This document shows positions 27,208-56,990 of a stretch of 64,000 nt of DNA, in pieces. The position numbers were made by a program, and so were the translations under genes. This stretch comes from Pestalotiopsis fici W106-1 (lineage: Eukaryota > Ascomycota > Sordariomycetes > Amphisphaeriales > Sporocadaceae). Position 1 is the first letter of the stretch, and each line of letters opens with the position of its first letter. Below the pieces are notes generated by a model. The model had not been told where the DNA came from. It saw nothing but the letters and a program-made list of their open reading frames with translations, and did not search any database. The stretch is from the NCBI RefSeq assembly GCF_000516985.1, contig NW_006917094.1, positions 1,612,001 to 1,676,000 of the forward strand, read 5' to 3'.

Positions 27208-28132
27208 TCATTCCTCATTAGGAAAGGGCTTGCGTCCGTAGACGACGTATCTGTAGTTGTTCTGGATTAGAGTATGTAAAAGTAAAATTGTCGGATAAGG
27301 ACTTACAGGGTGCCATATGGATGATTTCTGCAATCTCTCAAGTATTCGTGCGATTCTTTGACCAAGGTCTCAATCTCCTCCGCAGAGTAGCCGGCTTGGG
27401 TGAGAAATTTCCAACCCATGCCGCGAAGTCCATCGAGCAAGTTTCTGAGCTCCCACAAGCCAACCTCTTTGAGTTTCTTGTCCTGTGGCCATGGGTTGTT
27501 TGGCCATATAAAAGGCCGTTCTTGAACATCGACGACTTTGAAGAGCTTAGTTAGTCGCAGCGGTCAAGGTCACTCTTCTTCAGACTTACATCCAGTTTCT
27601 TCCAGCCACTGCTTATACTTTTGTGGCACGAGAATATCTCGGCCAACACTTGCGGCTCCGTCGATGCAGCCCTTGCACCACTTCTGAAGCGCGGAGCCTG
27701 CTTCCCATCAGTAAACCGCAGAGCCGACAGAGGTAGCACATCCTAACCTTCCCAATTAGGGCTATCGTCATTAAATTCGAGCGAGGCGTCTTGAAACTCG
27801 ATCCACCCTCCCGGATTCATGTTCTCGAAGGCGTTCTTCATGACTACGCGGGGGTCATCAAAGCAAGTCGATACCAGACGCAAGTGTACATAGTCGAACA
27901 TGATGCGATGCTCGCAAGGAAATTCACAGTTGGAGCCTGGGGGATGCGGTGCCGGGAACACCCAAGTGTCTTCGGCATCGTCCCTCTGAAAGACACAATT
28001 TGGTACATGCGGATTCTCTGGCTGGATTGCGCTCAGGTCGGTGCCAATGACATGCGATTGAGGGAACTTTTCCGCAAATTCGATAGCCCATATACCTGTC
28101 CCAGTCGCCACGTCGAGTACATATGCGGGCAC
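27208..28132 (-). pseudogene. LaeA/TAM-type methyltransferase, C-terminal half of a gene split by a 28.4-kb insertion
   Basis: Exons 27748-28132, 27590-27697, 27307-27535 and 27208-27250 run to a normal stop. They encode the SAM-binding motif VLDVATGTGIWAIEF, then VIGTDLSAIQP, FDYVHLRLV, MNPGGWIEFQD, WLEETGFVDVQERPFIWPNNPWPQD and a C-terminal VVYGRKP, all classical for the secondary-metabolism-regulator-like (LaeA family) methyltransferases of Pezizomycotina. The coding begins abruptly at Val-Pro-Ala-Tyr, with the expected first 150 or so residues missing. Those residues are found on the same strand at 56532-56990. With the CTG/CAG trinucleotide at the junction counted once, the exons of both halves sum to 1173 nt, a whole number of codons. 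As it stands the gene is interrupted; this half has no start codon of its own at the family position. Confidence 0.88.
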
Positions 28133-28135
28133 CTG
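28133..28135. repeat. Putative target-site duplication, left copy (CTG)
   Basis: CTG (CAG on the gene strand) occurs once at each junction of the 28.4-kb insert with the methyltransferase halves. Three bases can match by chance (1 in 64), so the duplication is proposed on the combined evidence of reading frame and terminal repeats. Confidence 0.5.
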
Positions 28136-28205
28136 CTATTTGACGTTTGGGAGCGGAAATTCCCTATTTCGGCCTAATTCCTCCTCGAGAGACACTGTTT
28201 TATGC
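28136..28205 (+). repeat. Left terminal inverted repeat of the 28.4-kb element
   Basis: Starts CTATTTGACG and runs through GGGAGCGGAAATTCCCTA, GGCCTAATTCCTC and CTCGAGAGACACTGTTTTA. It aligns, with a few gaps, to the reverse complement of the right end (GGAG-AAAAATTATCCTAA, TTGCCTAGTTTTC, CTCGAGAGACAGTGTTTTA). The innermost 19-bp block differs at a single base. Confidence 0.75.
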
Positions 28206-28210
28206 AGGTC

Positions 28211-28240
28211 TTATGCTGTCTTATGCTGTCTTATGCTGTT
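28211..28240 (+). repeat. 10-bp tandem repeat (TTATGCTGTC) x3
   Basis: Three consecutive TTATGCTGTC/T units just inside the left terminal repeat. They resemble the short sub-terminal iterons used as transposase-binding sites in other DNA transposons. Confidence 0.6.
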
Positions 28241-28250
28241 TTATCCTCGC

Positions 28251-28270
28251 GGAACACTGTTTCTCGAGGA
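28251..28270 (-). repeat. Third, inverted copy of the terminal core
   Basis: GGAACACTGTTTCTCGAGGA is the reverse complement of the terminal-repeat core with two or three changes. It faces the left terminus and encloses the 10-bp iterons, so the left end has a small palindromic arrangement. Confidence 0.6.
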
Positions 28271-28469
28271 ACGTGCATTGCAAATAAAAGCACTCGCATA
28301 TAATGTAGGCATAGGTATTATATTAAGGCAAGCTTTAAATTATAGAGTTCTAAAGACTTTCAAGAAACATTAGATTATACGGGACATGGCCCGTGCGTTA
28401 TCTACTGTGTATATGCTAATTGGGGTTATTTACAATTGCGTAAATACAGAGAGAGCAAGGTCCTCTCTC

Positions 28470-30112
28470 TTATCGCAGGTTCCATTTCTCAACGTCCGCC
28501 CATTGAAATGTCACCTGCTTAACCTCAGCCAGCCTAGTTAAAGTATTATTCTTCCGACTGCGCCGGCTCAGCCCTGTCTGCGACTCTTCATAGCTCCTCC
28601 ACAGCTCTGCAGTCCGGCGGATCTCGATCAGCTTGTCGCCATCGCTCCGATCTTCATGCTTCCGGACGATGTGCCCCCATAGCGCGACGACACTCTCGAA
28701 CCCCCTGATGCGAGGACAAAGATTGCATGCCAAGCTCGGCTTGTGCGCCTTCCTCTTCAGCCGAGTCACCGCGGCCCGATCGAGCGCTCCGAACCGAATG
28801 CCATGTCCCTGGCCGAACGTGAGAGGAAGCTGGTACTCTAGACTGCTGTATGGATGAAATCTCGGGCGCACTGGCGCTGGCGCTGGCGCTGGCGATGGCG
28901 ATGGCGATGGCATCCCCAGAGATTGACGCAACGCCCACACCTGGAGGAGGCATCTCTCGTATGTGGTCAAGGCTGCATGCTGCGGCAGGTTAGCGAACTC
29001 CCAGAGCGCGTGCCAGCCTGTCCTTACCTGCATCAAACAAGGCGGATCGTGTTGATCACAGCGGTCCGGAACGGCACGATTCTCGTTTCTCAGAAAGCGC
29101 GCCCGCTGGAAGCACTCGTTGCGCGCCTGGTTCACGGTGGTGGGCTCGTACACGATGTGAGAGGGTGTGATGCAGAACAGATTGTGACACAAGTGGGAGC
29201 CGTCCATGCGTTTGAAGGGGCCGCATTCCATAAAGTTGTCAAGCTCGATGCCGCTGCGAGGCCACTTACTATACCAGGCGATGGCTCTGGCCGCCGTGGT
29301 CGTGTGGTCCGAATACTTGAACATCTAAGTACGTTAGCAAGCCACCCGTGGTGAAGCCACACACGATCACATACCAGTCTGCCTGAGCTTGCCAACGGCC
29401 AATTGCTCTCGTTCAGCACATCGGCAATCTCGCGTGGTTGCAAGCCGACCCAGTCCTGTGGGCAGCTGATACAAATGCTAGATTGGCTGGCAGATGGTGA
29501 TGCTCCCCAAGCCGTAGTCAAGCCGGCGATCCACGAATCGAAGTGCTCCTTGCCTTTCTGAAGAATCCAGCACGCTGCTTTCTGCTGTGCCTGGAATACC
29601 TTGGACTGCTTCACATCGTAGCTTGGCATGTCTTCTTGGTAGCGCTCGCGGAGAATCCCACGCTGTTGCTCCCAGCGGTCGTCTTCCTGTGGAGGGTGAA
29701 CGGTTGGTGATGGAGCCATTGATGGTAAAGGGGGCGACGCTGGAAGAGGGCCAGCATCTGGCTCAGGGCACCTGGGGGGAGTTTTCGCGCCACGATCGGC
29801 CTCCAGCAAGGCTGCAACTCCCGGAAGCTGCACTGCAGAAGCCGGCACGTTGCTCAAGGCTGGCAAGCTGCCCAAGGCCGGCAATGGATGTGGAATAGCA
29901 GCCTGCCACAAAGTCTGAAGAGCTGGCGATAAGGCAGCCAGCGGTGTGGCAATAAGGGTCGGTTGATCCAATTGGTGCTGCTCTTTCAGGTGTCTCTTAA
30001 GGTTCCATCGTGTTTTGAGCACTGCGCCGCACAGCCTTCCATCAGCGTGACGCTCGTGGCACTGGTACTGGCGCGGATCTCTACTCATTATGCTCGCTGG
30101 ACTGCTGTTCAT
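28470..30112 (-). CDS. C2H2 zinc-finger protein with I-PpoI-like His-Me finger (zinc-loop) nuclease domain
   Basis: Exons 29375-30112, 29028-29324 and 28470-28979 (514 codons plus stop); the second intron (28980-29027) is 48 nt, so it can be mistaken for coding. The N terminus has a zinc finger (YQCHERHADGRLCGAVL, then RWNLKRHLKEQH), followed by a Pro-rich linker. The central domain reads GSHLCHNLFCITPSHIVYEP and VNQARNEC, matching the zinc-binding loop of I-PpoI-type endonucleases. The His of S-H-L-C (general base) and the Asn of V-N-Q-A-R (metal ligand) are both present, together with the zinc ligands C, C, H and the later C-x-x-H-x-x-x-C. A third C2H2-like finger (CNLCPRI, then GHIVRKHE) lies near the C terminus. 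An SP/AP repeat encoded by hexamers (28872-28912) separates the two. It is the gene nearest the left terminus of the element and a good candidate for DNA cleavage or end recognition; activity is inferred. Confidence 0.8.
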
Positions 30113-30537
30113 AGTCTTGAGGTGCAAAAGAGAATAGGAGACTTTGTGAGAGCGAGCAGCCTGGATCTTGTCGTCGCCCAAGGCAAACCGTCAAACAAGA
30201 ACCATCGTTTCATAGCGAGCATTGACACTCATCTTAGCACCCTGAATAAAGAGGTTCTGCCTGCGAATAAGACATATTCTGACTGCTCAGGTGTATACGG
30301 ACACCTGGGCGCGAAAGTCGATACAAGCGACCAAGCGCGACTCTGATTCCTTTGTGACATTGGGGATGGATGTCTGAGTCTCTCGGCAGCCGCGAGACTT
30401 GGTAAGGCACCTGTTTTGCTCTTGCAGGATATAATGGTCATTTTCTCCTCGAGTCGTTCGTCTAGTCTTAACCGCCATCATCCTCCAACTTCTATCACCA
30501 TCATTATCAGCACAGCCCCAATATACCAAGATTCACC
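30113..30537. other. Divergent intergenic region
   Basis: Shared 5' region of the nuclease-like gene and the small gene at 30538. Nothing further recognised. Confidence 0.4.
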
Positions 30538-31147
30538 ATGCCGATCACTCCAGAGCAGCAGGCAAATTACGACCGATGGGTCCGAACCCCATGGATCTTC
30601 GATTCATCACAAAGATTCCCTGAAGGTCCGTTCGGCGTTCCTGCAGAGGCGGTAACAAACGGCAACTGCCCTATCGGGGAATTCAAGGTTCGGAGTAAGC
30701 AATTTTTCTTTTTCCCTTTATCGATACTATGCTAACTAGAAAGTGATGTACGATGACCCTTACGCGGACGATACCTCATTCCAGCAGGGTATCACCTACG
30801 ATCTAAAGCCTGCGCGTCATGACACTATTGCCCTTGTGAAAGATTCTAAATTCTACGGCCTCCTCTCGGACTCTACAAATGGGAAAATATTGCGAGGCAC
30901 AATATGCCAATTGAACCCAAGCTGGGCAGCCAGAGTTAAAGTGACTTACAAACATAGCCGAGAGGCACTACCTGCCGATCGGTACCAAGAATGGGAAGAT
31001 GTTACTGATGCGCAGAGGGAAGAGAGGATAATCTGGCAGCAGTACCGCGGAATAGGCTTTTTATGGTTTGAGCGCATTCAGACGGACGCCGCAGAGAAGG
31101 ACGCCGCGGTGGTAAAGATGGGAGAACTTGATTTGAACAAGAGCTGA
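30538..31147 (+). CDS. Hypothetical protein (186 aa), unknown family
   Basis: Exons 30538-30694 and 30744-31147 in one frame; the 49-nt intron has a GTAAGC donor, GCTAAC branch site and AAAG acceptor. The protein is acidic, with aromatic-rich segments (NYDRWVRTPWIFDSSQRFPEGPFGVP; GITYDLKPARHDTIALVKDSKFYGLLSD; WQQYRGIGFLWFERI). I recognise no domain, signal peptide or membrane segment. It looks like a real gene because frame, splice signals and codon use agree. It is transcribed divergently from the nuclease-like gene and co-oriented with the next two genes. Confidence 0.65.
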
Positions 31148-31504
31148 AGGGTTGCTGTTGACTTTGGGCTGCTGCTGCTTTGGATCGCTGCTTGGCTTTG
31201 GGCCGCTTGACAGGGCTGCTTGATAGAGGCCTCTCTTCATATTGATATCGTCACCCAATTACCAATACAGCCTCATAAGACCGCTCCATATCTCTCATCT
31301 CCATTAAAACACAACAAGCTGGGTCGGAAAACGTGCTGCAGCATGCTGTGACGTGCTGCAGCATGCTTTGAAGCCATTTGAGCCCCCAGCATATTTTGAT
31401 TGTCCTCTAGCCAGCCGTTTCAACAATCGAAGCCATCAGTTTCAGCAGCTATTTGATTTCCCCAGACTCAAATCATTCCGCTCCTTCCTTTTCCTTCCTT
31501 CTTC
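31148..31504. other. Intergenic region with a 20-bp palindromic tandem
   Basis: No gene. Holds the ACGTGCTGCAGCATGCTKTG duplication listed separately. Confidence 0.5.
31331..31370. repeat. Palindromic 20-bp unit (ACGTGCTGCAGCATGCTKTG) x2
   Basis: Two adjacent copies of a unit containing the palindrome GCATGCTGCAGCA-type core TGCTGCAGCA. Variants recur inside the same element at 51356-51369 and three times at 56269-56318, near the right end. Confidence 0.7.
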
Positions 31505-32640
31505 ATGGCTGTAAGTCAGGCAGCCTCAAGCATCATGACTACCATCGCCGCCGCGGGTCTCATTGACCCATACGAAGTTCCCTCGTCGCCGTCGCCGTCG
31601 CCACCTCCGCCTCCGCCTCCCCGAAAGAGGGCTCGTGGAGCCATACCGAAGCCCAAACCTCCCCCCGGTACGTCTGTTAACCCATGGGAGAGGTACAAAC
31701 GGTAGCTAACGGTGACATGTAGAGCCTGCAACTGCTTGGGAAGCTGTCTGGAGCGCCTACAATGCCGTCAGACAGAAGTATCCTACACTACAATCGCGGC
31801 CAACTGCCAGAAGCGTCCGCGGTCTCCTGGACCTCCCGGTCGTGAGACCGTTACGATATGATAGACAAAGCGTTCGCAGAAGCGACTTCAACCTCCCCCC
31901 CGGCGCCCCTCAAAGTGGCAACCGCAATCTGAAAGCTGCGCTGTTGCAGGTGTCCAGTGCTGCTGCGCAGCAATCGTGTTCTCGTTGTGTGCAGCACAAG
32001 AACCTGTGGGACGTTTGTGTGGATACTGGTGAGGGCTGCTGTGCTGGTTGTTTGTGCAATGGCCAGAAGTCCAATTGCGCCTGTATGTACATCATACTCT
32101 TGCGATAATCTTAACTAACATGCAACCACAGTCCCAGATGTCCAAGATGAAGGAGGAGAAGGAGAAGGAGAAGGAGCAGAAGGACAGGAAGAAGGACAAG
32201 AAGGAGGAGAGAATGGCCTACCCTTCCTCGAAGACATCCCAGAGGAGGCCCCAGAACCACAGGTTCACGGAGGAAAGTCCTCCTTGGGGCAGGAGGCCTC
32301 TGCATCTGTCCGCCCAACGGATGCAGAGCGGCGTCTGCAGTTAGATGCCATGACGGATGTGGAGCGGGCGGACGCTCTACATAAAGCAGTGCAAGATCTT
32401 CGTCTCTTGTACGAGAGAAGAGCCCCAGAGGCCGGCAGCGACGAGGACGAGGACAAGGACACCGCCGCCCCCACCACCACCACCATCACCAACACCAACA
32501 AGACCAATGACGACGACGATGATGATATGGGAGATGATTTTGGCCGGTTTATCGGCAATGAGATCGAGGATGGCGACGCTTGTATTGAAGCAATGTTGGA
32601 TTGGGCTGCAAATGGCATGAATATGGATAGTAATGAATGA
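31505..32640 (+). CDS. DUF3716-like cysteine-motif protein with acidic C terminus
   Basis: Exons 31505-31667, 31723-32082 and 32132-32640 (343 codons plus stop). The N terminus is low complexity (SPSPSPPPPPPP then KRARGAIPKPKP, a likely nuclear signal). The middle has WEAVWSAYNAVRQKYPTLQ and SVRGLLDLPVVRPLRYD, and a cysteine motif SCSRCVQHKNLWDVCVDTG followed by CCAGCLCNGQKSNC. Its C-x2-C ... C ... C-x2-C ... C spacing is that of DUF3716, a fungal domain of unknown function. The C terminus is Gly/Glu repeats and an Asp run. No catalytic function can be inferred; a DNA- or chromatin-associated role would fit the cysteine motif and charge but is inference. Confidence 0.72.
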
Positions 32641-33739
32641 TGCATGTTCTCTGCTGTTGTCCGTCAATCAACTGTCACTTCTCATAAACATGCTGCTCGT
32701 GATATTAAGTACAACCACCACATTTCGCAGCTGTGGCATGCAGAGAACTTTTAGCAAATATACTCTGTACGCAGATGATAACCCCAGTTTCAGTGCAGAC
32801 AAAAGCATCGACTCGGAATGCATGCGGGAAAGTGTCTCGCGATCAAGGTGAGAATTTCTTTTTCCAAGTACGGAATAGAGGCGGGAAATTGGATGACGGA
32901 CAGCCAGTCCATGATTGGATTGCAAGGACTCCCTTGCCGCGAGGATGCGATCATCGACCAAGATGGCGCTGATTCACTCAACTCCTTTGCTTTCTTCGGC
33001 TTGGCTATAATTGCGATAATACGGCATGCACGGTATTTCCAATGCGGTTACTCTCAGAGAGACGCAGGCGCCTTGCATATCGTGAGGATGATAAGTGACA
33101 ATGCTTTGCTTAGGAAAAGCAAGTGACAACACAGATCCAGAATCAACTCGAGTATATGCAGTACGATTTCAAGCGGCCACATTACATGTCGCTAGGGGTA
33201 TGCCAGACAAATCACGAGATGCCAATGCCCGGATATCCTCCGGCCGGTGCGCATTGCGTGAAATTGGAGGCTGGTTACTTTTTGCAGGTAGGTATGGCTA
33301 TATTGCTGGGATTTTCTTTTTCCCCTGGCCTGTGCTGTATACGTACAAGATCGATATGCTTGCTCCAATGGTCGAAGAGATCGTGGCCGCCGCCAAGAAT
33401 TCCATCCTAATGGCTGTCATTAAGAGACTCATTCCTACCTGCCGTGAATACATGCGAGGGCATCCAAAAAGGCCGTGTTTTCTTTTTTGTCTCTTGTTAA
33501 ACAAGGCTTGGGTCGTTGATGATGAGTCCGGCTTAACAATAAGTCTAGCAAAAGAAAGCAGCCGACATGATCGAGGGACCGCGATGAGTAAAAGACGGCT
33601 ATAAGATACCCTCTTGATGCCGAATCCTGGGGACCATTACGGTCATCAAACCATCTAGCACTTGTACCTCAATCATATTGCTTTCATCTGCCCTCCCAAC
33701 ATCAGCCTGTTCGCATTCCTTGCACTTCCAAATATCACC
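32641..33739. other. Intergenic region within the element, no supported gene
   Basis: About 1.1 kb. Several overlapping open frames exist (for example 33095-33604) but none has splice signals, motifs or a consistent coding character. Confidence 0.4.
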
Positions 33740-34462
33740 ATGTCCAACTTTGACGCCCGTAACGACGCCCTCGAACGGCAGCAAGCCGTCAACGTGGCTT
33801 CTATACATGGGCCCTTCTGTCCTGGTAATCTCTGGGACTTGGGATACCAGCTTGAGTGGAGTTTCGATGCAGCAGAAGACATAGACAGTCTCCACGACGC
33901 TGTTGCGCTCGCCCAGTCCACTCTCAAGGACAACCCCAACTGGCAATCCGAACCTGATCGTTACATCATCCTGAGCTATTTCGGAAGACTCCTGCATCGC
34001 AGTTTCAACGAGACCGGGAATGCGCTCCACCTCCACACGTCCATTCACATGTTCCGGCTGGCCGTTGATGCTGATATCCCGGACAAAGCTCAGCTTGCCT
34101 TGATTTTCAGCACGATTGGGTGCGTATTTGGTGCACAATATGGCCAGACAAGGAATTTGGACGACCTCCAACAGGGTCTGGACATGTCGGTTCAAGCGGT
34201 GGACGTGGTCCCGGAAGACCACCCCACAAGTAGGATATTCTGCAGCAATATGGGGACGTTTCTCTCACGTCGCTTCCTCGCCACCAGTGACATCAAAGAC
34301 TTGGAGGATGCAGTAGATGCAGTATGGCAGGCGTTTAAGAAGATACCTCGAGGGTACCCTTCTCGAGCCCCGCTGCTTTGGCGGCTGTATAGGGAGCTGG
34401 AAAAGGCTGTGAATAAGGAGCTGCGAATAGTTGATGATGCAGAGATAGTCGAGATTGAGTGA
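33740..34462 (+). CDS. TPR-like protein, N-terminal type of fungal TPR-CHAT proteins
   Basis: Single-exon 240-aa protein starting at the ATG at 33740. It contains repeated helical units of the degenerate TPR kind seen before CHAT domains in fungi: DIDSLHDAVALAQSTLKDNP, LSYFGRLLHRSFNETGNALHLHTSIHMFRLAVDA, IFSTIGCVFGAQYGQTRNLDDLQQGLDMS, CSNMGTFLSRRFLATSDIKDLEDAVDAVWQ. The pattern (LGxxLxxRFxxTGxxxDLxxAV) is clear. It stops after about four units and has no CHAT protease or other effector domain, so it is either a short stand-alone scaffold or a truncated copy. The ending VDDAEIVEIE is acidic and seems natural. Confidence 0.72.
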   Translation: MSNFDARNDALERQQAVNVASIHGPFCPGNLWDLGYQLEWSFDAAEDIDSLHDAVALAQSTLKDNPNWQSEPDRYIILSYFGRLLHRSFNETGNALHLHTSIHMFRLAVDADIPDKAQLALIFSTIGCVFGAQYGQTRNLDDLQQGLDMSVQAVDVVPEDHPTSRIFCSNMGTFLSRRFLATSDIKDLEDAVDAVWQAFKKIPRGYPSRAPLLWRLYRELEKAVNKELRIVDDAEIVEIE

Positions 34463-35641
34463 TGGGCGAAGTATGAGGGGGAGTAACAGCGAAAGCACCA
34501 CTCGTGGATGTACTGCTAAGGATGAGGTCGGGTTTGTCTGCGATAAAAGTGTTGTTTTTGTTGATAGGTATTTTATTTTGTTGAAAACAGCTATGCATGT
34601 CAAGTCAGTTACGTATATCCAAGGTTTCACAATGCTAGGTATCCACATTTGCCCAATTCTAATCGCGATCCGATTGCTGTTTCAGCTTCTTCAACACCTT
34701 CACCTTCAACACCTTCGAGAGTCCGCTGCGACCCTATGCCTTGCCCCATCGTCACGATGGCATCATTTTTATCGCCGTCATTGAAGCAGAGAGCTTCTTG
34801 TTATCACCCGCTGAGGGTGTGTTAGCGTTTCCGCGTTCCCCACGTCCAGATGCCGATGGACGAACGGCGAATACCGTGCCCCGACCACCAGTACGTACTC
34901 GGGAGCCGAGTACACTCAACCTACCACGGTCCCACAAACTGCACAATCTATTGTCGCATCCCATTAGTAACCCATTTGGCCGAAAGATCCATCGCCAGGA
35001 CTTTCGCGCTTTACCGTCGATTCGCGTGCGGGTGAAAACCTCTAACCACCTGTTTACAACTCTCTGTTCATAACGGAGTTGGTATAGTAACCTTCGACTT
35101 CCGACATGAGTCCTTAGAGCCAGCACACCCCCTGCCATAAGCTCAAAGAAAGCGCACTGTCGGTGGAGTGAGGCTACAGGTCTCTGCAAAATCTCGTAAA
35201 TCCGTAAATCAGAAGGCCCTTTGAGCTCATCTATCCCTCGCCATTCCATACTTCGTCCTTGTCACGCACGTTAGATTGCAAGTCTCAACAGGAGTGACCT
35301 GAATAGTGAGATTCTCAGCTAACCTAGGGAGGCGCAGTCGGATTAGTTGCTCGTCACAAAGTTACATTAATCAATGTTTGCATTCAGCCGAAAACAGTCA
35401 ATTACGATGAGCTTTTGACACCAGCCAAACTCCATAAATCAACCAAACTCCAACTCCGATCTAGAACGTCAAGCAAGCCATGCCTCCCAAAGATGCAGAC
35501 CCCCAAATCAGCCAAACTCCAACTCCTGGAAATGTCAAGCAAGCCATGCCCCCCAAAGGTGCAATCCAGCACCCCTCTTCACAAGACGATATCATCACGC
35601 GCCATATACACAATCTCACCCAAGCGCTGCGAATTTCCACC
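34463..35641. other. Intergenic region within the element
   Basis: About 1.2 kb. A 165-codon minus-strand open frame at 34752-35249 is Arg-rich without motifs and I leave it uncalled. The right end carries a 63-bp duplication (see separate entry). Confidence 0.4.
35446..35572. repeat. 63-bp imperfect tandem duplication
   Basis: The segment CAAGCAAGCCATGCC with its flanks occurs at about 35472 and again at about 35535, with shared context CAAACTCCAACTC. It lies downstream of the stop codon of the large zinc-finger gene, in its probable 3' untranslated region. Confidence 0.55.
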
Positions 35642-41752: not shown

Positions 41753-41753
<1 letters not shown>

Positions 41754-44710: not shown

Positions 44711-45010
44711 CTTAGTATCATCTCCAGGTGACACGATATTTCTTATTAGGAAGGCTTACCTAGTGTGGCAGGCGTCATGCCACTGGTGCTGAGGGAGGAG
44801 CAATGCTGTGCTTCGCGTCTTAGCATCATCTCTCAGTGGAGGGTATGGTAGCTGTGATGGCTTACTGTGGCAGGCGTCATGCCACTGGTGGTGAGGGAGG
44901 TGCTTCGCGTCTTAGCATTATCGTCTTATCATCATCTCTAAATGGTAGGTATGATATCAGGATGACTTACTATGGCAGGCGTCATGCCACTGGTGCTGAG
45001 TAACATGGGT
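44707..45010 (-). repeat. About 105-bp tandem repeat with exon-intron-like units, x3
   Basis: TGGCAGGCGTCATGCCACTGG recurs near 44766, 44868 and 44973. On the minus strand each unit reads a short open segment (AGTGGCATGACGCCTGCCA), a GTAAGY donor, an intron-like stretch of about 50 nt with GATGATNCTAAG, and the next open segment. Two of the units would be in-frame 36- and 45-nt exons. Confidence 0.65.
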
Positions 45011-48014: not shown

Positions 48015-49086
48015 TGTGAGCCTTTGGTCTGATCAGAGCACAAACGAGGCGAGATTAGAGAGGATGTGTGGTCAGAAACCGATAAGCCGGGCGGTGTCAG
48101 AAGAGGCAGTGGAAATAATGAGAGTTTAAATACAGTTATGACTCCGAAAGGAAGACAAGCAGAGCGATCGGGACCTGCCTGCCGTTGGATGTCCCTGGGC
48201 GTAGAGCGCTGGGTGCTCCTTTGAGTCGCCTTTGGCCATGTGACTATGTATCGAATGGCAGATAAACAAAGCTGTGTGGTCAATTAGGGCAGAGTAGTCC
48301 AGGTTGTGAAGTGCCATGTTTGACACCAAGACATGCAGCTTGCGCAGCTGTAAGTGCTCGGGCTATCATCTTCCAAACCACACTGCAGCGCTGCTTTGAT
48401 CACTGGGCTTTTGCGGTTGAGCAAAGTGTGATGTCGTGGGATGATATCAAAAGCGATGGGACAAGAGATCACACAAAAGGGGCTTTCAAGGTGGGAAGAA
48501 TTGGATGGGCGAGATCAATCGAAAAGAGAACAAGACCGAATCTACAAACGCGCGTCCCGCTATAGCTTCAAGGCATCCACATCCGACAGGAGTGTGTATA
48601 AGCAATGGAGTGAAGACATGTCAGGCTCTGATATAGTCAGACCCGGCAGCTCCGGGCTGGCAAAGCAGCATGCAAGATCCCTTGTTGTCTTTGACCTCCT
48701 GTCGAGCACCAGAGAGATAGATAACAGCTTGACGCATAGGAAACGTTGCATGGTAAGAACTATTCAATAAGGAGATGTCAGGCAGCAAAGTAGAATTAAG
48801 CATGCAAATAGATGGGATGCAGGGCCATTCCCGTCCGACCGAAAGCCTTGCTTAGGCTTATTCATAGGCTACATCTCCACCTCGCGGTGTCTTCGTTCTT
48901 CTTGTTTGGCCTGTATGCAAAAATGAAATCCCCAAAGTCAAAGCGAATACCACTGTCTTGTCTATCCACCTTTTGTTTTTCCTCCCACTTAGATGCCGGT
49001 ACTTGATCCGGCCCGAAGGAAGATGAGGTTCTCTCGAGCAGGATCGTAGCTGGAGCGGCGGGCGCGTCGAGGCGAGATTATTGGCC
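48015..49086. other. Intergenic region within the element
   Basis: About 1.1 kb; no supported gene, repeat or RNA. Confidence 0.4.
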
Positions 49087-49659
49087 CTACTTTCTCTCGA
49101 AGCCGTCGTCCCCGAGCTCGAAGCCGTTCTTCTCGAGTCTGTCCGCCAAATCGGCCAGAACCTCCTGTATATTGGTCATCTTGCTGTTGACCGCGACGAA
49201 TTGGGTGCTCGCGAGGTGGTAGTCTTTGAATGCCTGATCGAACTCGGCTTTGAGTCGCTCGTGCTCGCTATGGGCCAACTCGAGCTGTTGGCGAGCGATG
49301 TCGAGGTCGGACTCGCACCTCTTGAGATCTCGGTAGAGTCCATTCGCAATAGACTGCTGTACTTCTAAGGCCATCTTCTCCATATTGTTCTTTCTGCCTT
49401 GATCGCCAGGGTTGTTCGTCGTGGCCGAGCTGCCAGCCTGGGCGGGTGCGGCGCGACCATCTGTTGAACCTGCCATGTTGCCGGAGGGGCCGTTAGGGGA
49501 AGAAATACGCTGGTCATCTTGGCGCTGCTTGTCGCTTGCGGCCTGAGGGCTTTCGTCTGGCTGCTTCTCCATTGGCTTGCGGACGATGAGCTCGCCGTCA
49601 GCCCGGGGTGACCCATCAGGATCAGGAGTAGGCGAGTGGTGGGATGAGCTGGACTGCAT
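49087..49659 (-). CDS. Hypothetical protein, disordered N terminus and coiled-coil C terminus
   Basis: Single-exon 190-aa protein. Residues 1-90 are Ser/Pro/Gln/Asp-rich and disordered. Residues 95-190 form a long heptad-like helix (MEKMALEVQQSIANGLYRDL, then CESDLDIARQQLELAHSEHERL, then VNSKMTNIQEVLADLADRLE). No domain, signal peptide or membrane segment. Likely an oligomerising scaffold; function unknown. Same strand and style as the genes at 47027, 50116, 51455 and 52817. Confidence 0.6.
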   Translation of the reverse strand: MQSSSSHHSPTPDPDGSPRADGELIVRKPMEKQPDESPQAASDKQRQDDQRISSPNGPSGNMAGSTDGRAAPAQAGSSATTNNPGDQGRKNNMEKMALEVQQSIANGLYRDLKRCESDLDIARQQLELAHSEHERLKAEFDQAFKDYHLASTQFVAVNSKMTNIQEVLADLADRLEKNGFELGDDGFERK

Positions 49660-50115
49660 GGCGTCTTTTTGAGAGGTAGATTAAAGCTTGTCCGATAGGG
49701 AATGATCGCGAGCGCAGAGGGTATTGCCAGATGGTGGCGATGAATCTTGAGCGGAGTCCCGGAAAGCTGAGATGCTGCCGCGGGGAGTAGAAAAGGTGAA
49801 GACGTGGAAGAGCTTCTTTACAAACGACAGACGGAAACGAGGCCTTGTCACGGATATTTCTTTTTCCAGGTAAAAAGTATTACATCGGTGGTGTGTACTT
49901 TGTAGACATGTCACTTACAACGTGCCGCGGTCGACGGGTCCCAGCATTAGTCTACGCACACCCTGGCGCTGGCCTCAAGCGATATGCAAAAATTATCTCT
50001 GCCTTTCTGTAATTGCTTATGGATCGAAATGTTGGAATGAATCTATCAAAGAGGGCAGAATAGCCGTAGTGGCCTGTGGGGTATTATACACGTAACAATC
50101 ACCCCTTTTAACTTA
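49660..50115. other. Intergenic region within the element
   Basis: About 450 bp between two coiled-coil genes; nothing recognised. Confidence 0.4.
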
Positions 50116-50760
50116 TCAAAAACCACGTAACATATGGGCGCACTCGCTCAGCAAGCGCAAAAGGCTATTCATACGAGCAGAGTTATGCTCTTCCATCATT
50201 TCCACGGCTTGGAGCCTTTCCTTGATCTCGACCAGATCGTCTTTGAGACCTTGTATTTGATGTTGCTCCACCGCTTCGAGCCTTTCATCGATCTGGGCCA
50301 GATTGTCTGCGAGATCCTGCGCTTGACGTTGCTCCACCGCTTGAAGCCTTGCGTCGAAATCAAATAGACCGTCTTCGAAATCATATGCTGGATATTGCTC
50401 CACCGCTTGGAGCCTTGCGTTGAAATTAACCAGATCGTCTTTGAGATCCTGTGCTTGATGTCGCTCTAGCGTTTGAAATCGCTCCACCGTCTGTAGCCTT
50501 TCGTTGATCTGGACTAGATTGTCTGTGAGATCCTGTGCTTGATATTGCTCCACTGCTTGGAGCCTTGCGTCGAAATCAACCAGATCGTCATGGCGATCCT
50601 GTGCTTGATGTCGCTCTCGCGTTTGAAATCGCTCCACCGTCTGTAGCCTTTCGTCGAAATCAACCAGATCGTTTTGAAATGATTGGGTATCGAGTCCGTC
50701 AATGCCGTTATTGCTCCGGATCCCGCCCTCCTCTCTCTTTAGGTGCTCAGGCGCATCCAT
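50116..50760 (-). CDS. Coiled-coil protein built from tandem ~30-residue repeats
   Basis: Single-exon 214-aa protein from the ATG at 50760. After a short start (MDAPEHLKREEGGIRS) the protein is about six repeats of the type DLVDFDARLQAVEQYQAQDL, nearly 100% helical with heptad spacing, ending in NSLLRLLSECAHMLRGF. The DNA repeats (roughly 90 bp) are highly similar, so the array expanded recently or is kept homogeneous. The heptads suggest a parallel coiled-coil rod. No known family recognised; low-complexity coiled coils give misleading similarity hits, so I assign no function. Confidence 0.65.
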   Translation of the reverse strand: MDAPEHLKREEGGIRSNNGIDGLDTQSFQNDLVDFDERLQTVERFQTRERHQAQDRHDDLVDFDARLQAVEQYQAQDLTDNLVQINERLQTVERFQTLERHQAQDLKDDLVNFNARLQAVEQYPAYDFEDGLFDFDARLQAVEQRQAQDLADNLAQIDERLEAVEQHQIQGLKDDLVEIKERLQAVEMMEEHNSARMNSLLRLLSECAHMLRGF

Positions 50761-51454
50761 ATTGAGGAGTTTGCGCAACAAGTGATGCTCAAAATGCTTA
50801 TGCAGGCAATCGGAGAAGGGTAACTGAATGATAGGCTAGAAGAACGAGCTGGAGGAAGATGGAAAGAGAAAATCAAAAAGCGTTGGCTTCCTTTTCGTTC
50901 GAACGGCCTCGTTTGTTAAGATGAATGAGGTTATGGTAAGTGAAGTGATTGATTAGTTGGTTGAATATCTGTACGTATTTATAGGAGTAGGGAGAGGTAT
51001 ATATATATATATATTTTATAGTGGAGCATGAAGCCCGAAATCCGGGCTCCTATTTCAACATCATTTGCCAAATCTATGCTCCCCACGCATTTATTGTCGT
51101 TTGCTGTTGCGTAAAGAAGGCCAAAATATTATGATAATGTATTTTGCCGAAGATTGGGGGAAAATCACGGGACTATGCGCGGGCGACGGATCTGAGCATT
51201 AGTCTTCATGTATGCATGCTGGCTTTGGCCTCAAGATGTAGGTGACCCCTCGTATGCTCTATTGTAACACACTATGCCGCTCTCAAGTATGGTAAATCTA
51301 TGGAGAATTGTCGCCGTCTATCCAGAATCGCCCGACATGGTAGAGGCGTAGAGTACATGCTGCAGCATGGTGGTGAGCTTGCCAGCAAGTCCCACACAGC
51401 CTGTCTTCAACCTTTGTAATCTTCTCCACCGGTCTATCCTCTCGCATGTCCAAC
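50761..51454. other. Intergenic region with (TA)n and a palindromic motif
   Basis: No supported gene. A (TA)n run lies at about 50998-51012, and the CATGCTGCAGCATGG palindrome at about 51356. Confidence 0.45.
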
Positions 51455-52477
51455 TTAGATGGCGTCGCCCTCTTCGTCTTCAGCAGAGGCGCTGCGGCGA
51501 CGTCGCTTGTTGCTATCGGAACGGGAGATCTGCTTTCCTCTGAAGAGGTCCATGGCGTTTTGAATAGTCGCTAGGGCATCCTCAGGGCGGGCCGCGCTGG
51601 GAGTGGTCGGGGTGCGCGGCGAGCTCAAGAGGCCGCTCAGGACGTGCGCCGGACCAGAAGCGTCGCTTTTGGCGCTGCCGGATGCCTTGGGTACAATGGT
51701 CAAAGTTCGATGTCGTCGGCCAAAGGTGGGGGACGTCATCTCTTGATCGCCGGATTTCTTGGGCTGCAGAATCTTTCTCACGGCTGAGATGGGCGACGAG
51801 ACTGGCTTCTTCTCGACCTCACGAACAGCGGGGCTCCCCCTGGTGCTTCTGGTTGCACGTACAGGTCGCTGTCTCTCCTCGTCCTCCCTAGCGACGCGGG
51901 CTCTTTCGTCCGCGATGCTCTCCAGCAGTACGAGAAGATTCTATCAGAGTTAGAGAGACTGGAGAACAGCGGAGCGTGTTCGTGCACATACATCCATGTA
52001 GGTCTTGACGTGACCTTCGAGGCTCACTTGACTGCCTTGTTGGGCGCCCGAGACTTGGTATCTCGCGGACGATGTCGTCGCGAAAATCTTGACGAGCGTC
52101 TGGAAGGTGGTGCCGTCCCGGCGATAGTCAAGGCCGTACGAGACCATATTCAGAATCGCCTTTGCTTCGTTTGGGGTAATGGAGCTCGCTGTGAGCTCTG
52201 GCATACCCAGCAAGATCAGGGTCTGCCTCATGTCCTTTGTATTGGCATTCATACAATAGCCAACGGTATACGGAGGCGGGCTCCGAATATAGAGCTGGAA
52301 ACTGTGGTTGGTATTCTGCATTTTGGACCTGGGGAGGAGCTTGGTATTAGTTGCTCGGGAATGTATCTTTGATGATCGTGGAGCTGGAGTGCGTAGTCCT
52401 TGAGGTGGCGGCAATCCTAGACGCCGGCGTGGCCCTTTAATAGGCAGACGACTGCGCGTTTGAGAATATTCAGGCAT
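51455..52477 (-). CDS. Hypothetical protein with basic, disordered C-terminal half
   Basis: Exons 51992-52477 and 51455-51940, separated by a 51-nt intron (GTATGT, CTAAC, TAG), 323 codons plus stop from the outer ATG. The ATG at 52321 (MQNTNHSF) is an equally good start, because the preceding residues look like leader. The N-terminal region is probably folded (KDMRQTLILLGMPELTASS, then NEAKAILNMVSYGLDYRRDG). The C-terminal half is disordered, Ser/Pro/Arg-rich, with a possible nuclear signal NKRRRRSASAEDEE. Function unknown. Part of the right-half series. Confidence 0.62.
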
Positions 52478-52816
52478 TAAGAATCAAGATGTCTCGGTTG
52501 CAGCTGGCCTGAGCATGGCTCTTAGCATCAAGGAACCGGTTTGCGGGAGATGGCAGCCAGGCTGCCAGATCACCGGCACGACTTGGGTTGGATCCAGGAT
52601 GCTCAACTACGTTTGTTCTGCCACCTATGCACGCGTGGAAGGATGCCTTATGTGGGTGCTCTCAATGCAGACTACGGACAAAGGTGCTTTCGAGCGTTGC
52701 CACGTACTTTGGATTTCAAACAAATATCTGAATTCTACAACTTTGCATAGGTACATGGATGGAGAGCCCTTCCACCTCAGCCTAGGCCCTTCCTTCGCGG
52801 TGCATTATCCTCGGTG

Positions 52817-53614
52817 CTAAGCGGTGTCGTCTCTGAGGAGCTCCTGGAAGATCTCTCTGATCCTGTCAAAACGATCGGCCTCTGTCACCTGGCGCCGCTG
52901 GACGCCGTAGATGTCGCCCTCCCATTCGTCGAGCTCGTTCTCTAGCTCGCGGACAAGTATGAGAGAGGATGACGTCGAGATCTCTGAGACTGGTGTCTCC
53001 GGACGGCCCCTGCCTCGGCGGTGCCTGTTGCGGCGGTCTGCACTGGGCAGAAGAACGGCGAGAGACTGGACGAATGCGCCCAGCGCCTCCAGCACTTTGG
53101 CTTGGTTTGCGTCCCTGTCTGTTGAAAATCGAGAATCCTGTGACAGAGATGCGGTCGAGTTCCGCTTGTTGTGGCGGCGTATACGGCGGAGTCCCCCACG
53201 CGATCTGGTGCCTCGCGACGTTCTGCTCAGTGTGCTCTCGGCATCTTCCTCGACTAGCCGGATGTGCTCTAGGATGCGCTGCATGGTGCCGCTCTTGTGC
53301 TCCTTGAGCTGTGGGTGTGGATGCTCGGGGACTTCGTTGTCGTTGGCGTAGTCCAGCATCTCTTTCTGAGTTCCCTTGCAGAGCATGATGACGGTGCCGA
53401 GGTATCTTGTTTGGGTGCCTGGCTCGAGCTCAGCCCAGTGCATGAAGATGCGTGCGATCAGTTCCGCCTTGTAGGGGCTGTTGCCGATCTTCTGGGTAAC
53501 TATGCCCAGGGGCGCCGCGACGTTCTCGAGCTGTCTGACCGTCATGGAGAAGATGTTAGGGAAGACGTCAGGGATCTCCGCCTCCTCGGTAGTATTGAGC
53601 TGGCCTCGTGTCAT
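52817..53614 (-). CDS. Hypothetical protein with SAP-like motif and basic region
   Basis: Single-exon 265-aa protein. Residues about 22-60 read SMTVRQLENVAAPLGI and SPYKAELIARIFMHW, close to a SAP motif (two helices with the K-A-E-L-I-x-R-I pattern that binds DNA). A basic, Arg-rich stretch (SRGTRSRGGLRRIRRHNKR, about 135-153) and an acidic helical C terminus (VRELENELDEWEGDIYG) follow. The SAP assignment is by eye and moderate. A nuclear DNA-binding role would fit. Same strand and spacing as its neighbours. Confidence 0.65.
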   Translation of the reverse strand: MTRGQLNTTEEAEIPDVFPNIFSMTVRQLENVAAPLGIVTQKIGNSPYKAELIARIFMHWAELEPGTQTRYLGTVIMLCKGTQKEMLDYANDNEVPEHPHPQLKEHKSGTMQRILEHIRLVEEDAESTLSRTSRGTRSRGGLRRIRRHNKRNSTASLSQDSRFSTDRDANQAKVLEALGAFVQSLAVLLPSADRRNRHRRGRGRPETPVSEISTSSSLILVRELENELDEWEGDIYGVQRRQVTEADRFDRIREIFQELLRDDTA

Positions 53615-55167
53615 TTTGGCGAGTTAGGAATGCAGAGCAGGTGCTGGGCGATGAGTGAAGAATGTGCAAGGACATCAGAGGGCTTGAAGGCTCCCGGGAC
53701 GCGGGCCTGGTGCTTGGGCTTCTCTCATACTACTTCTACCTCGCATCATAAAGACTGGCGTAATGCCATCTTTCCGGTCTGATACCAGTGTGTCTGATGC
53801 TTGTCCAAGATCACGACGCTGCTGTCTCACGAAGCTGAACTATAGTGCTATTAGCACTGTGCGATCCCGGCGTGTCTTGAAATCATGTATTCAACTTTTC
53901 TACACCACTCGCGGCTGCGGGCGCAAGGCTGGCCAGGCCCTGAGTCCGATCACGCGCCATGTTGAGCAATGGGGTTGGCCAGACCTTCTTGCTCGCCATG
54001 TGCAGTGATGACAGCTGCAGTGTTTACGACTAAGCTACTGGATGTCCGCCTGCGCCATGCTGTGACCATTTATCTCCAGCCCGAGACATGAATGCCGCTG
54101 GCGGTACTCCTCAACTACGCAGGTGCCGCTGATGACGCTCCTCGTCTTTGCCTTACCCCTCAAATTCGCCTGATTCGTTTGTTTGGTTGTTTTCTGCCCT
54201 GGAAGCGAGTGGGAGGAATGGCGCTATGTCCGGGACAGCATGCGCAGTCCCGATCTCCTTCCAGCCCGGCCCGGCGCATGGCTAGCGCAGATGCCCAATG
54301 GCCAAGGCGGTGAAGCCAGGGTGGTGGCCTGTGTCGAGAAGCTCTCTGGCGTGATTTGGCCAGGACAAACGACAGTGAGAGTGGCGATGGTCGCAGGCTG
54401 AGGGCGGTGTGATGGGTCTTGGGGATATTTTTCTCCGTTGAGCCTTCCAACAAATCCAGGTGTGTTCAGCCGACGTGCATCGTATCGCTCCCACCAATGA
54501 TGCGGGAGTCTCTCCCCGGGCTTCATGCGGCTTGCCGTGGATATTGTGGGGTGGTGAGCGCCGGCGTGTGCTGCTGCGCTTTGGTGTTCTGTTTTGGTCC
54601 CCCCCATCGGCGGACTCACGATCTCCAGGTTGATCAGGCCTGGAAAATGTAAGTGTCGTGGGCGACTGGACTTTGGGAATGCAAATCTTCATCGGCTGGC
54701 CGGGCCCAAGGGGGAAAGGGGGAAATGGTTTTTTTCATAAGAACAGCACCGTATTCAGGACATGGCTTGGGCTTGTTGATGTGCCTGGGTTGATAACTTG
54801 GCCGCGATCACGTATGGAATCATCTGGGTCGCTCCACAGTGGTCTCGCAACTGCGACCAGAGACATGGAGCACCGAGACCAACTGATACAGCCTCAATCA
54901 AATGCTTTGACGTGACGTTGGGCCCAGCTTCTAACATCGCCGTCAAAGGGTGTCTTCCTCAGCCTGACTTGCTGTTCGGCCGTGACGCTTTTCGCCTGCC
55001 GGATGACGCCTGCGCTTGAGTGGTCCTCGCCGCCTGCCTGATCTCTGTTGCCTGTGTTGATCTTTGCTTCATCCTGTGCTCCTGATCTCTCTGTAACCTT
55101 GACACATTCCACCAAGCTGAGCAGCATCTTGAGCATTCAGCCTGCATCTTGATCGTCGCACGTAAAC
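53615..55167. other. Intergenic region within the element
   Basis: About 1.55 kb. Overlapping open frames at 54160-54692 are GC-rich artefacts without motifs. The right part is the promoter of the gene at 55168. Confidence 0.4.
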
Positions 55168-56134
55168 ATGTCCTCCAGCACTCCCACCGCCCAGACGCTG
55201 GAGAAGCGTTTCGTGGGCACCTGGTGGCAAGATACCGTCGCGGTACTTCGCAAGGCCAACGAGGACCGAAAATTGCCCGTCAACTTCGATAATGGCAGGG
55301 CCCTCCTGAAGGCCCAGCTGATTGCTGTGCGGGGCTTGTACGAGATGGAGTTCAAATGGGAGGACCTGGAGCGCCTCTTTGACTTGGCCTCTGTCCTCGC
55401 CGACGCGGACATGACGTACATGGCCACGTACCTCGAGCAGCTGATCGGCGTTGGCAAGGCCTCGTACAAGGCCAGAGGAGATTACATGACACACATCTTC
55501 GAGTTTGCCAAGGGCTGCAAGGATCTGAGTACCCTGCCATCTGTCAAGAACAAGAAGGGCGAGACCGTCGGTCCGGTTTCCGCTGACGACCAGGTAAGTT
55601 TGCCAAGCCTCCGCAGAGGCTTTTGCTGACGTTGGGCAGGGCCTCACCGGACCCGGCGCAGACGACCAAACTCAGCCGGACAAGATGAGCATAGACATCC
55701 CGTCGCCGCTCCGAAAGCCCGAGGGCGCTCAGGCCGGCCCCAGCGGCGCCTGGTCTCAGGCTGCGCCGCGCCAGCCCTTCGACAGGACCGCCGGCGGCCA
55801 AGCCAAGCAGTTCTTTGGCTCGCAGAGCAAGAAAGACGACAAGTTGGTCCTTGAGAAGACAGTCGAGTTCGTAACGCTCGTCACCAAGCTCATGCCGGAG
55901 GAGTTCGACGGAACCGAGAATGCCCGTCAGGTTGCCCTCATTGAGAAGTACAAGCCAGCCATCGCCAATCGCCTGACGGCCATCGATGAGCAGAGGGAAG
56001 AGCTTCAAGTCCAGTTGGACGAGCTGGGCAGGAACTTTGAGCAGGTCACCGAGGCCTTCAGTCAGCTGAAGGTGGACCAGGACAAGCTAGCCGACTTTCT
56101 TGGTCGCGCAGGACTTGATGTTAGAACCTTTTGA
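55168..56134 (+). CDS. Hypothetical helical protein, last gene before the right terminus
   Basis: Exons 55168-55593 and 55640-56134; the 46-nt intron has a GTAAGT donor. 306 codons plus stop. The N-terminal ~120 residues are helical with aromatic residues (EKRFVGTWWQDTVAVLRKAN; GLYEMEFKWEDLERLFDLAS; YMATYLEQLIGVGKASYKAR). The middle is disordered. The C-terminal ~100 residues are a charged helix and coiled coil (VLEKTVEFVTLVTKLMPEEF; QVQLDELGRNFEQVTEAFSQ). The only plus-strand gene of the right half, transcribed towards the right terminal repeat about 330 bp away. No family recognised. Confidence 0.68.
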
Positions 56135-56268
56135 GGGCGTGAACTGGATAATAGGCTTGATGAGGTCCTGATCAATGTAACCGAGAGATGATAGACTGAC
56201 ACAGAGGTGCTTACCTACATAATCTGTTGATAACTGCATTATTGACTTCGGCTTTTAAGGTGGAAAAT

Positions 56269-56318
56269 GTGCTGTAGCATATTTGAATGCTAAAGCATGT
56301 TTGAATGCTGTAGCATGT
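56269..56318. repeat. Cluster of three TGCTGTAGCATG-type palindromes
   Basis: GTGCTGTAGCAT, ATGCTAAAGCAT and ATGCTGTAGCATG occur within 50 bp, about 200 bp inside the right terminus. They are variants of the 31331-31370 unit. Confidence 0.6.
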
Positions 56319-56462
56319 TAAATCAAGGTAGTAATTACAATTGAATATCGAGTCTCGAGTACGATAATATATGCAAACTGCTGGTAAACCAATGCAAGCT
56401 GATCATAAGACAGGTGCACGGACGGCGCTAAGCCCAATTAGGCTAGCTTTATGCAGGTTTCA

Positions 56463-56528
56463 CAAGTAAAACACTGTCTCTCGAGGAAAACTAGGCAAAA
56501 TTAGGATAATTTTTCTCCTTTTGTTGAA
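56463..56528 (-). repeat. Right terminal inverted repeat of the 28.4-kb element
   Basis: The reverse complement starts TTCAACAAAAGGAGAAAAAT and reaches CTCGAGAGACAGTGTTTTAC. It aligns with the left terminus as described there. CTG at 56529-56531 follows immediately. Confidence 0.75.
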
Positions 56529-56531
56529 CTG
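56529..56531. repeat. Putative target-site duplication, right copy (CTG)
   Basis: Matches CTG at 28133-28135; counting it once restores the methyltransferase reading frame. Confidence 0.5.
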
Positions 56532-56990
56532 TAAGGGTGCAAGACCGTGCCACCCGTCCAGAAGGAGTGTCAACAGGTGATGCTGAAGATCTAAACGGTC
56601 CTGCTCAGCCTTTGATTGATCAACTTAGCATGCGAACTTCATGGTGTAGGCAATGGTACGAACAGCATCGTTGGGGAAATAATATTTTCCATCCTTGTAA
56701 CCGTGGTACAATCTACCCGAATCCCCAAGCACCGAGTTGGGATCAATGACGGATAACCCACCTGGGGTACGGCCTAATGACGCATTGACTTGTTCGTTGG
56801 CCTGAACAGCAAAGTCAGGATCGGTTGTCGCTCTCTCCAAATACGCAAACTCTCGAAGTATAGGGTCCACCTGGGGAATGGATTCGCTGTACAAACGAAT
56901 CGGTGGCCGTAGCATGGCGTGGGTATACGACACGTTTTCTACCACTACACTTTCGGCGCGATCCCGACCATTCTGGCCAGCCGGAGACAT
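56532..56990 (-). pseudogene. LaeA/TAM-type methyltransferase, N-terminal half of the split gene
   Basis: Exons 56664-56990 and 56532-56609 with a 54-nt intron (GTTCGT donor). The ATG at 56990 opens MSPAGQNGRDRAE, and the frame runs through PPIRLYSESIPQVDPILREF to the family hallmark SGRLYHGYKDGKYYFPNDA. After the intron it continues as AEQDRLDLQHHLLTLLLDGW and HGLAPLQ, exactly where LaeA-family proteins lead into the SAM-binding V-L-D-x-G-T-G-T-G strand. Coding stops making sense at that point and the right terminal repeat of the 28.4-kb element begins. The missing remainder is at 27208-28132. Without splicing into that half, transcription would run into the element and meet a stop within about 25 codons. 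Confidence 0.86.

What the first reader, a model, noticed from the sequence alone, without database searches (positions are those of the whole stretch)
27208..56990. A LaeA-type methyltransferase gene is split in two by a single 28.4-kb insertion
Two minus-strand fragments each lack exactly what the other has: N half 56532-56990 ends at HGLAPLQ; C half 27208-28132 begins at VPAYVLDVATGTG. Order and strand are correct. With the repeated CTG/CAG counted once, the predicted exons add up to 391 codons, and the joined residues match the family. The 28,393 bp between (28136-56528) therefore behave as one insertion. This is the main anomaly of the window: a 12-gene block that I cannot assign to any known element class.
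Basis: partly seen in the sequence, partly recalled or inferred. Interest (0 to 1): 0.87.

Follow-up and report, generated by a model that had tools for sequence, protein, structure and literature searches.

The report
Giant fungal transposon splitting a methyltransferase
A 28.4-kilobase mobile element has landed inside a fungal methyltransferase gene; no known transposase or giant-transposon recombinase was found in it, but it carries a homing-endonuclease-type DNA-cutting gene, relatives of which sit at many other places in the same genome.

Summary
Confirmed and extended. A Methyltransf_23 (LaeA-like) gene on the minus strand is split by one insertion, 28136-56528. A second full-length copy (C3:4629996-4667101) has the same two ends but other flanks, so these are element ends, not an assembly join. 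Both copies abut the octamer CCTTACAG (minus strand) and share imperfect terminal inverted repeats. The C3 copy is RIP-mutated (6,629 of 7,059 mismatches C>T/G>A; 1.5% other differences); the window copy is not. Two RIPped, diverged loci (C5, C1) keep the order of core genes. At Pfam sensitivity the insert has one informative domain, an I-PpoI-type His-Cys-box (His-Me finger) nuclease, whose 11 catalytic/zinc residues are kept in 15 of 15 aligned sequences covering them (window included). No Starship captain (DUF3435), DDE transposase, integrase or polymerase was detected. A 1,225-residue C2H2-type protein is the other large core gene. Nuclease relatives lie at about 14 loci in this genome; nine show two nuclease matches on one strand, 24-33 kb apart. 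Best reading: a captain-less giant element, probably of an undescribed superfamily, using the nuclease and/or the zinc-finger protein to move. The mobilising enzyme is not proven.

The parts
28136..56528 (.). the inserted mobile element, 28,393 bp
   Evidence: same two ends in the copy at C3:4629996-4667101, other flanks
27208..28132 (-).
   Evidence: Methyltransf_23 E 3.2e-16; paralogue matches within 27306-28135
56532..56990 (-).
   Evidence: paralogue matches within 56658-56882 and genome hits
28133..28135 (+). CTG, left copy of possible 3-bp target duplication
   Evidence: sequence; not duplicated at the C3 copy
56529..56536 (+). CTGTAAGG (CCTTACAG on minus): octamer next to both copies; starts with the right CTG
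   Evidence: 5 occurrences on both strands in the 264,000 bases examined, two of them these junctions
28157..28202 (+). left terminal inverted repeat (includes TCCTCGAGAGACACTGTTTTA)
   Evidence: local score 45 against a maximum of 26 in 1,977 control pairs; core motif 4 times in the genome at up to 2 mismatches, all at the ends of the two copies
56467..56512 (-). right terminal inverted repeat
28473..30112 (-). nuclease gene: C2H2 finger + I-PpoI-type His-Cys-box (His-Me) domain; exons about 30112-29372 and 29324-28473
   Evidence: PF05551 E 1.2e-14; 15 homologues; exon map
30472..34459 (+). plus-strand ORFs (30472-30735, 30740-31144, 31716-32105 with weak DUF3716 E 0.003 below cut-off, 33659-34459 TPR-like by eye): cargo, no relatives seen in C5/C1
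35813..39487 (-). 1,225-aa ORF (first ATG at residue 11): conserved N-terminal domain of unknown fold + about 8 C2H2-type fingers (below Pfam cut-off)
49090..49680 (-). core gene, coiled-coil-like, unknown function
   Evidence: conserved in C5 and C1
50119..50835 (-). repetitive coiled-coil-like ORF, not seen in C5/C1
   Evidence: DUF7518 28.1 bits, cut-off 27; repeats D1
51953..52483 (-). core gene of unknown function
52820..53623 (-). core gene of unknown function, 268 aa
   Evidence: 4 matches in the genome: window, C3, C1, C5
55153..56131 (+). core gene of unknown function, two overlapping ORFs (probably exons); found in window, C3, C5, not in C1

Best explanation
Shown: the insert is one copy of a 28.4-kb multi-gene mobile element with imperfect terminal inverted repeats, inserted once, at a CCTTACAG site inside a methyltransferase gene. 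Shown at Pfam sensitivity: no recognisable Starship captain, DDE transposase, integrase or polymerase. Inferred mechanism: it moves as a discrete unit whose ends are recognised through the inverted repeats, probably by the C2H2-type fingers of the 1,225-aa protein, while the I-PpoI-type nuclease, or an unrecognised catalytic domain in the 1,225-aa protein, makes the target cut. Inferred history: the C3 copy was mutated by RIP in a past sexual cycle; the window copy, un-RIPped and differing by only 1.5% outside RIP-type changes, arrived or survived without meeting it in such a cycle, for example by recent introgression or horizontal transfer.
For: Same ends at two loci with different flanks. 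Inverted repeats far above control, their core only at the two copies. RIP context: CA 78%, CT 54%, CC 26%, CG 18% changed; 430 of 28,146 aligned positions differ otherwise; TA/AT index 0.64 for the window insert against 1.27 for C3. Core genes in the same order in C5 and C1; 0 hits for shuffled ORFs. C5 AT-rich block about 27 kb, close to the element's length. Six-frame scan of the insert: PF05551 only. Nuclease: S97 H98 C100 C105 H110 E114 N119 C125 C132 H134 C138 the same in 15 of 15 rows that cover them, window included. Nuclease relatives at about 14 loci, nine in pairs 24.3-32.9 kb apart.
Against: No gene is shown to catalyse movement. The 3-bp repeat is absent at the C3 copy. The shared octamer could have been carried from one site to the other rather than chosen twice, and no clear copy of it was seen at the edges of the C5 block. 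Ends of the C5 and C1 relatives were not found and the window's inverted repeats are not detectable there. The large zinc-finger gene occurs alone, un-RIPped, at C7, so it may be a host or cargo gene, and it does not match at the nine paired-nuclease loci. The structure model of its domain was useless (pLDDT 31). The six-frame scan did not re-find the DUF7518 match, so it is less sensitive than ORF-wise scans, which covered 18 ORFs of the insert.
Confidence: 0.6

Rival explanations
1. A captain-less Starship derivative, mobilised in trans by a DUF3435 recombinase elsewhere in the genome.
For: Size, inverted repeats, short direct repeat and a TTAC-containing insertion site resemble Starships (passages of one paper: TIRs in 18/20, DRs of 2-12 bp in 19/20, sites such as TTACA(N5)AAT). 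The genome has three DUF3435 matches.
Against: None of the three lies in the insert or at the C3, C5, C1, C7 or C8 relatives; no DUF3435 in the six-frame scan and no significant match of a captain-like ORF of this genome to the insert; the inverted-repeat core occurs only at the two copies at up to two mismatches, so it is not shared with a captain-bearing element at that level.
Confidence: 0.15
2. A TIR transposon whose DDE-type transposase has diverged beyond Pfam, hidden in the N-terminal domain of the 1,225-aa protein; the nuclease is an accessory, as in KolobokP.
For: Inverted repeats; long conserved domain next to C2H2-type fingers; KolobokP shows that a DDE transposon can carry an I-PpoI-type nuclease (PMC9587614, abstract and passages).
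Against: No Pfam transposase in six frames; no fold obtained; no TTAA duplication; no direct repeats of 20 bases or more joining the two ends.
Confidence: 0.2
3. An integrated virus or virus-like element (Polinton-like).
For: Length, many small genes, inverted repeats.
Against: No polymerase, integrase, packaging ATPase, protease or capsid family in Pfam; eight ORFs without PHROGs match; no relative in viral contigs for three queries.
Confidence: 0.04
4. Assembly artefact or two unrelated pseudogene fragments.
For: None found.
Against: Second copy with the same ends; complementary, non-overlapping halves.
Confidence: 0.01

Closest known systems
Starship giant transposons of Pezizomycotina
   Same: tens of kb, many genes, single-event insertion, inverted repeats near the ends, TTAC-containing insertion site (Starship features from passages)
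   Different: no DUF3435 captain gene detected in the insert or at its C3, C5, C1, C7 and C8 relatives
KolobokP transposons (PMC9587614)
   Same: inverted repeats plus an I-PpoI-type His-Me finger nuclease
   Different: here 28 kb, fungal, no DDE transposase found, no long terminal direct repeats, no TTAA duplication; KolobokP was reported from seven animal phyla
I-PpoI and group I intron His-Cys-box endonucleases
   Same: catalytic and zinc-binding residues of the motif kept
   Different: here in a larger protein with C2H2 fingers, encoded by a multi-gene element
Polintons/Mavericks (features recalled)
   Same: multi-gene element with inverted repeats, similar length
   Different: no polymerase B, integrase, ATPase, protease or capsid detected at Pfam sensitivity

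Membership tests
Starship | DUF3435 tyrosine recombinase (captain) at the 5' end | tested here: not met
   family search of the genome gives 3 matches, none in the insert or its C3, C5, C1, C7, C8 relatives; six-frame Pfam scan negative; hhalign of the 1,225-aa protein with the genome's own captain-like ORF, probability 1.6%
Starship | short flanking direct repeats | tested here: inconclusive
   CAG at the window copy, none of 3 bp at the C3 copy
Starship | inverted repeats near the ends (usual, not universal) | tested here: met
KolobokP | DDE transposase | tested here: not met
   no transposase family in Pfam, six frames; a diverged one is not excluded
KolobokP | long terminal direct repeats and TTAA target duplication | tested here: not met
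   no direct repeats of 20 bases or more joining the two ends; flanks CTG, not TTAA
KolobokP | I-PpoI-type nuclease | tested here: met
His-Cys-box (I-PpoI-type) nucleases | H98, H110, N119 and the zinc ligands of the motif | tested here: met
   present in the window; same in 15 of 15 covering rows, window included
His-Cys-box (I-PpoI-type) nucleases | sequence-specific double-strand cleavage | not testable with these tools
   needs purified protein
Polinton/Maverick | polymerase B, integrase, capsid genes (recalled) | tested here: not met
   Pfam sensitivity only
Methyltransf_23 / LaeA-like methyltransferases (interrupted gene) | Methyltransf_23 domain | tested here: met
   E 3.2e-16

The most novel reading that the evidence does not exclude
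A superfamily of giant fungal elements, separate from Starships, whose constant gene is an I-PpoI-type nuclease fused to C2H2 fingers; the nuclease takes the place of a recombinase, cutting a semi-specific site and letting repair install a 25-33-kb multi-gene unit. The window element is its freshest member, the only stop-free nuclease match among about 14 loci in one genome.
Probability: 0.3. Interest if true: 0.9.

Novelty: new variant of a known kind. Interest (0 to 1): 0.72.

Why it matters
Giant cargo-carrying transposons in these fungi are found through one gene, the DUF3435 captain, in the one paper whose method I saw. An element of the same size class with clean ends and no detectable captain would be missed that way, and here nuclease relatives occupy about 14 loci in a single genome. 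If the nuclease is the mobiliser, a homing-type enzyme would be driving a 28-kb multi-gene unit. The un-RIPped copy beside a RIPped sister copy also bears on when and how it arrived.

Tried and rejected
Captain hidden in the 1,225-aa protein: no invariant HxxR in its N-terminal domain (one at residue 752, in the finger part), hhalign probability 1.6%, tblastn of the captain-like ORF to the insert E 1.6 at best; rejected at this sensitivity, but the alignment has only 3 rows. Structure of residues 150-730: two-row alignment, pLDDT 31, not used. Structure of the nuclease exon: mean pLDDT 64, not used. Fold searches: none run. Relatives in viral contigs: none for three queries. More homologues of the large protein: one only, P0001, in two searches, the second scoring only the 7,982 candidates sharing most words. 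Ends of the C5 and C1 relatives: not found; a strong C5 'inverted repeat' (score 102, shuffles 37-46.5, same pair uncomplemented 67) lies in GC-rich flank and was judged composition-driven; no clear CTGTAAGG at the C5 edges. A second nuclease gene in the window insert: none by motif or by tblastn with a B-type piece. The PF05551 profile itself finds only two places in the genome, the window and a weak one at C3:5362879; the other nuclease loci were found with the protein. The semi-palindromic look of the insertion site was noticed by eye and not counted.

Literature: ten searches listed no description of such an element; the library is open-licence PMC only. Papers: PMC12153272, passages; PMC9587614, abstract and passages; PMC9281073 and PMC3158057, passages, not relevant; others only as search listings.
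Full report
The observation. The window lies in a 51.7-Mb genome of 20 contigs at C4:1612001-1676000; it is fungal by its content (HET and AA9 domains; RIP; fungal nuclease homologues). The two minus-strand fragments belong to one Methyltransf_23 gene. Of 8 paralogue loci from the same genome, two (L003, L007) match both fragments with different, non-overlapping residues, four match only the C part and two neither. L007, a single open frame, matches the N part with residues 98-155 and the C part from residue 181 on, and reads LAPLPRAPRLALDVATGTG where the window has LAPLQ at one edge and VPAYVLDVATGTG at the other. A genome search with the N part gives 9 matches; the 8 besides itself are 39-67% identical.

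One insertion. A DNA search with the left end of the insert finds C3:4629996 onward, the match beginning at query base 4, i.e. window 28136. C3:4629996-4667101 covers the whole insert in order, interrupted by an extra stretch of about 8.6 kb at C3:4632238-4640793. Beyond the ends the flanks differ, except that the right edge of both copies continues with CTGTAAGG, i.e. CCTTACAG on the minus strand; outside the left edge both have CAC (GTG on minus), directly at C3 and after the CTG in the window. In the window the octamer lies in host coding sequence, since the LAPL that it helps to encode is kept in L007; so it is either a preferred site or was carried to C3. It occurs 5 times on both strands in the 264,000 bases examined, two of these being the junctions, and was not clearly seen at the C5 edges. 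CAG is repeated at the window copy and not at C3.

Ends. An imperfect inverted repeat of about 46 bp lies close inside both ends (28157-28202 and 56467-56512). Its score of 45 compares with a maximum of 26 in 1,977 control pairs from the insert. Its core occurs four times in the genome with up to two mismatches, at the ends of the two copies. The left end also has three TCTTATGCTG repeats and an inverted copy of part of the core.

RIP and age. Of 7,059 mismatches between the two copies, 430 are not C>T or G>A on the window-to-C3 reading, 1.53% of 28,146 aligned positions. Changed fractions are CA 3,115 of 4,007, CT 2,018 of 3,742, CC 903 of 3,468 and CG 593 of 3,359, the pattern of RIP. The window copy is unaffected (TA/AT 0.64, flanks 0.70 and 0.58; C3 1.27). 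The two copies therefore probably did not pass a RIP-competent cycle together at high similarity; recent arrival by introgression or transfer is one explanation, a long asexual period another.

Relatives in the genome. The 1,225-aa protein has matches at C3, C7, C8, C5 and C1. Of 241 ORFs of 60 aa or more in the insert, 7 (six genes) match the C5 region and 4 (three genes) match the fetched C1 region at E 1e-4, against 0 for shuffled ORFs in each of four regions; C7 and C8 match only the zinc-finger gene and ORFs antisense to it. The C1 matches of the zinc-finger gene and of gene 52820-53623 come from the whole-genome searches; the 55 gene was not found at C1. The order nuclease - zinc finger - 49 - 52 - 53 (- 55 in C5) is kept, with the nuclease inverted in C5 and C1 and the 49 gene inverted in C5. 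Gene 52820-53623 has four matches in the genome: window, C3, C5, C1. Gene 51953-52483 also has fragments at C6:2322795-2323351. The C5 relative is an AT-rich block of about 27 kb between GC-normal flanks.

What it encodes. Eighteen ORFs of the insert were scanned one by one: above Pfam cut-offs are PF05551 (E 1.2e-14) in the nuclease ORF and DUF7518 (28.1 bits, cut-off 27) in the repetitive coiled-coil-like ORF 50119-50835; all else is below cut-off. A six-frame scan of the whole insert at E 0.01 lists PF05551 alone; as it did not re-find DUF7518, it is the less sensitive of the two. Eight ORFs have no PHROGs match. DUF3435 is found three times in the genome, which shows that the search works, but not in the insert or at its C3, C5, C1, C7 and C8 relatives. 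The nuclease aligns with I-PpoI over SHLCHN..C..P.H...E....N..RN.C; the conserved residues named in PMC9587614 (S97, H98, H110, E114, N119), and the zinc ligands as numbered from recall, are the same in 15 of 15 rows that cover them, i.e. the window and 14 homologues, one of 16 rows being too short. Seven of the 15 homologues bear an organism name: Hypoxylon, Xylaria, Pestalotiopsis (91% over 35% of the query), Pyrenodesmia, Seirophora, Blastenia and Oculimacula. The host is perhaps near Pestalotiopsis; this is a weak inference.

A wider class. A whole-genome search with the nuclease exon gives 29 matches, at 14 loci by my count; 28 of the 29 contain TAG/TAA stops, the window's being the exception (30 candidates scored, so a lower bound). 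The Pfam profile alone finds only the window and one further weak place, C3:5362879. Nine loci have two matches on one strand, the weaker one upstream of the stronger one by 24.3-32.9 kb in all nine; random placement of the same numbers gives a mean of 0.022 such pairs and at most 2 in 2,000 trials (the split into stronger and weaker matches was made by me after seeing the table). One upstream member, read from 252 bases, is a degraded nuclease domain with RIP-type changes. The window element has a single nuclease gene by motif. I could not fetch these loci, so whether they share ends or other genes with the window element is open; the zinc-finger protein does not match there.

Mechanism. Discrete ends with inverted repeats at two loci argue for an enzyme that recognises the ends. 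Candidates encoded by the core are the nuclease and the 1,225-aa C2H2-type protein, whose N-terminal domain has many invariant residues across three sequences but no known fold, no invariant HxxR, and no similarity to a captain-like ORF of this genome. The nuclease-plus-zinc-finger model is my choice at moderate confidence; a hidden DDE transposase or a captain acting in trans remain possible.

Comparison with the known. It works like a giant cargo transposon, but it fails the captain test for Starships and the DDE and long-direct-repeat tests for KolobokP. Ten literature searches listed no description, in an open-licence library only.

Noticed in passing
G000 C8, C3, C9, C10, C19, C4, C7, C2: Nine loci with two stop-containing His-Me nuclease matches on one strand 24-33 kb apart: probably further giant elements.
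   Followed up: partly
L029:1992-6101 (C7:302 kb, minus): Un-RIPped 1,369-aa open frame of the zinc-finger protein with a ubiquitin-like N-terminal stretch (by eye) and no other element genes within C7:290001-330000; possibly a host gene derived from the element.
   Followed up: partly
C3:4632238-4640793: AT-rich stretch of about 8.6 kb inside the C3 copy: a nested insertion.
   Followed up: no
window 7500-14500: AT-rich block (GC 0.28, TA/AT 1.25): probably another RIPped repeat.
   Followed up: partly
window 4358-7096 and 57847-60282: HET-domain genes on both sides of the split gene; the right one has its HET domain divided between two ORFs.
   Followed up: no
C6:2322795-2323351: Two fragments similar to gene 51953-52483, one 82% identical and without stops, away from the other element genes.
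   Followed up: no
C3:6026617-6027783: A strong DUF3435 captain-like match (E 3.8e-66), so the genome may also hold a true Starship.
   Followed up: no
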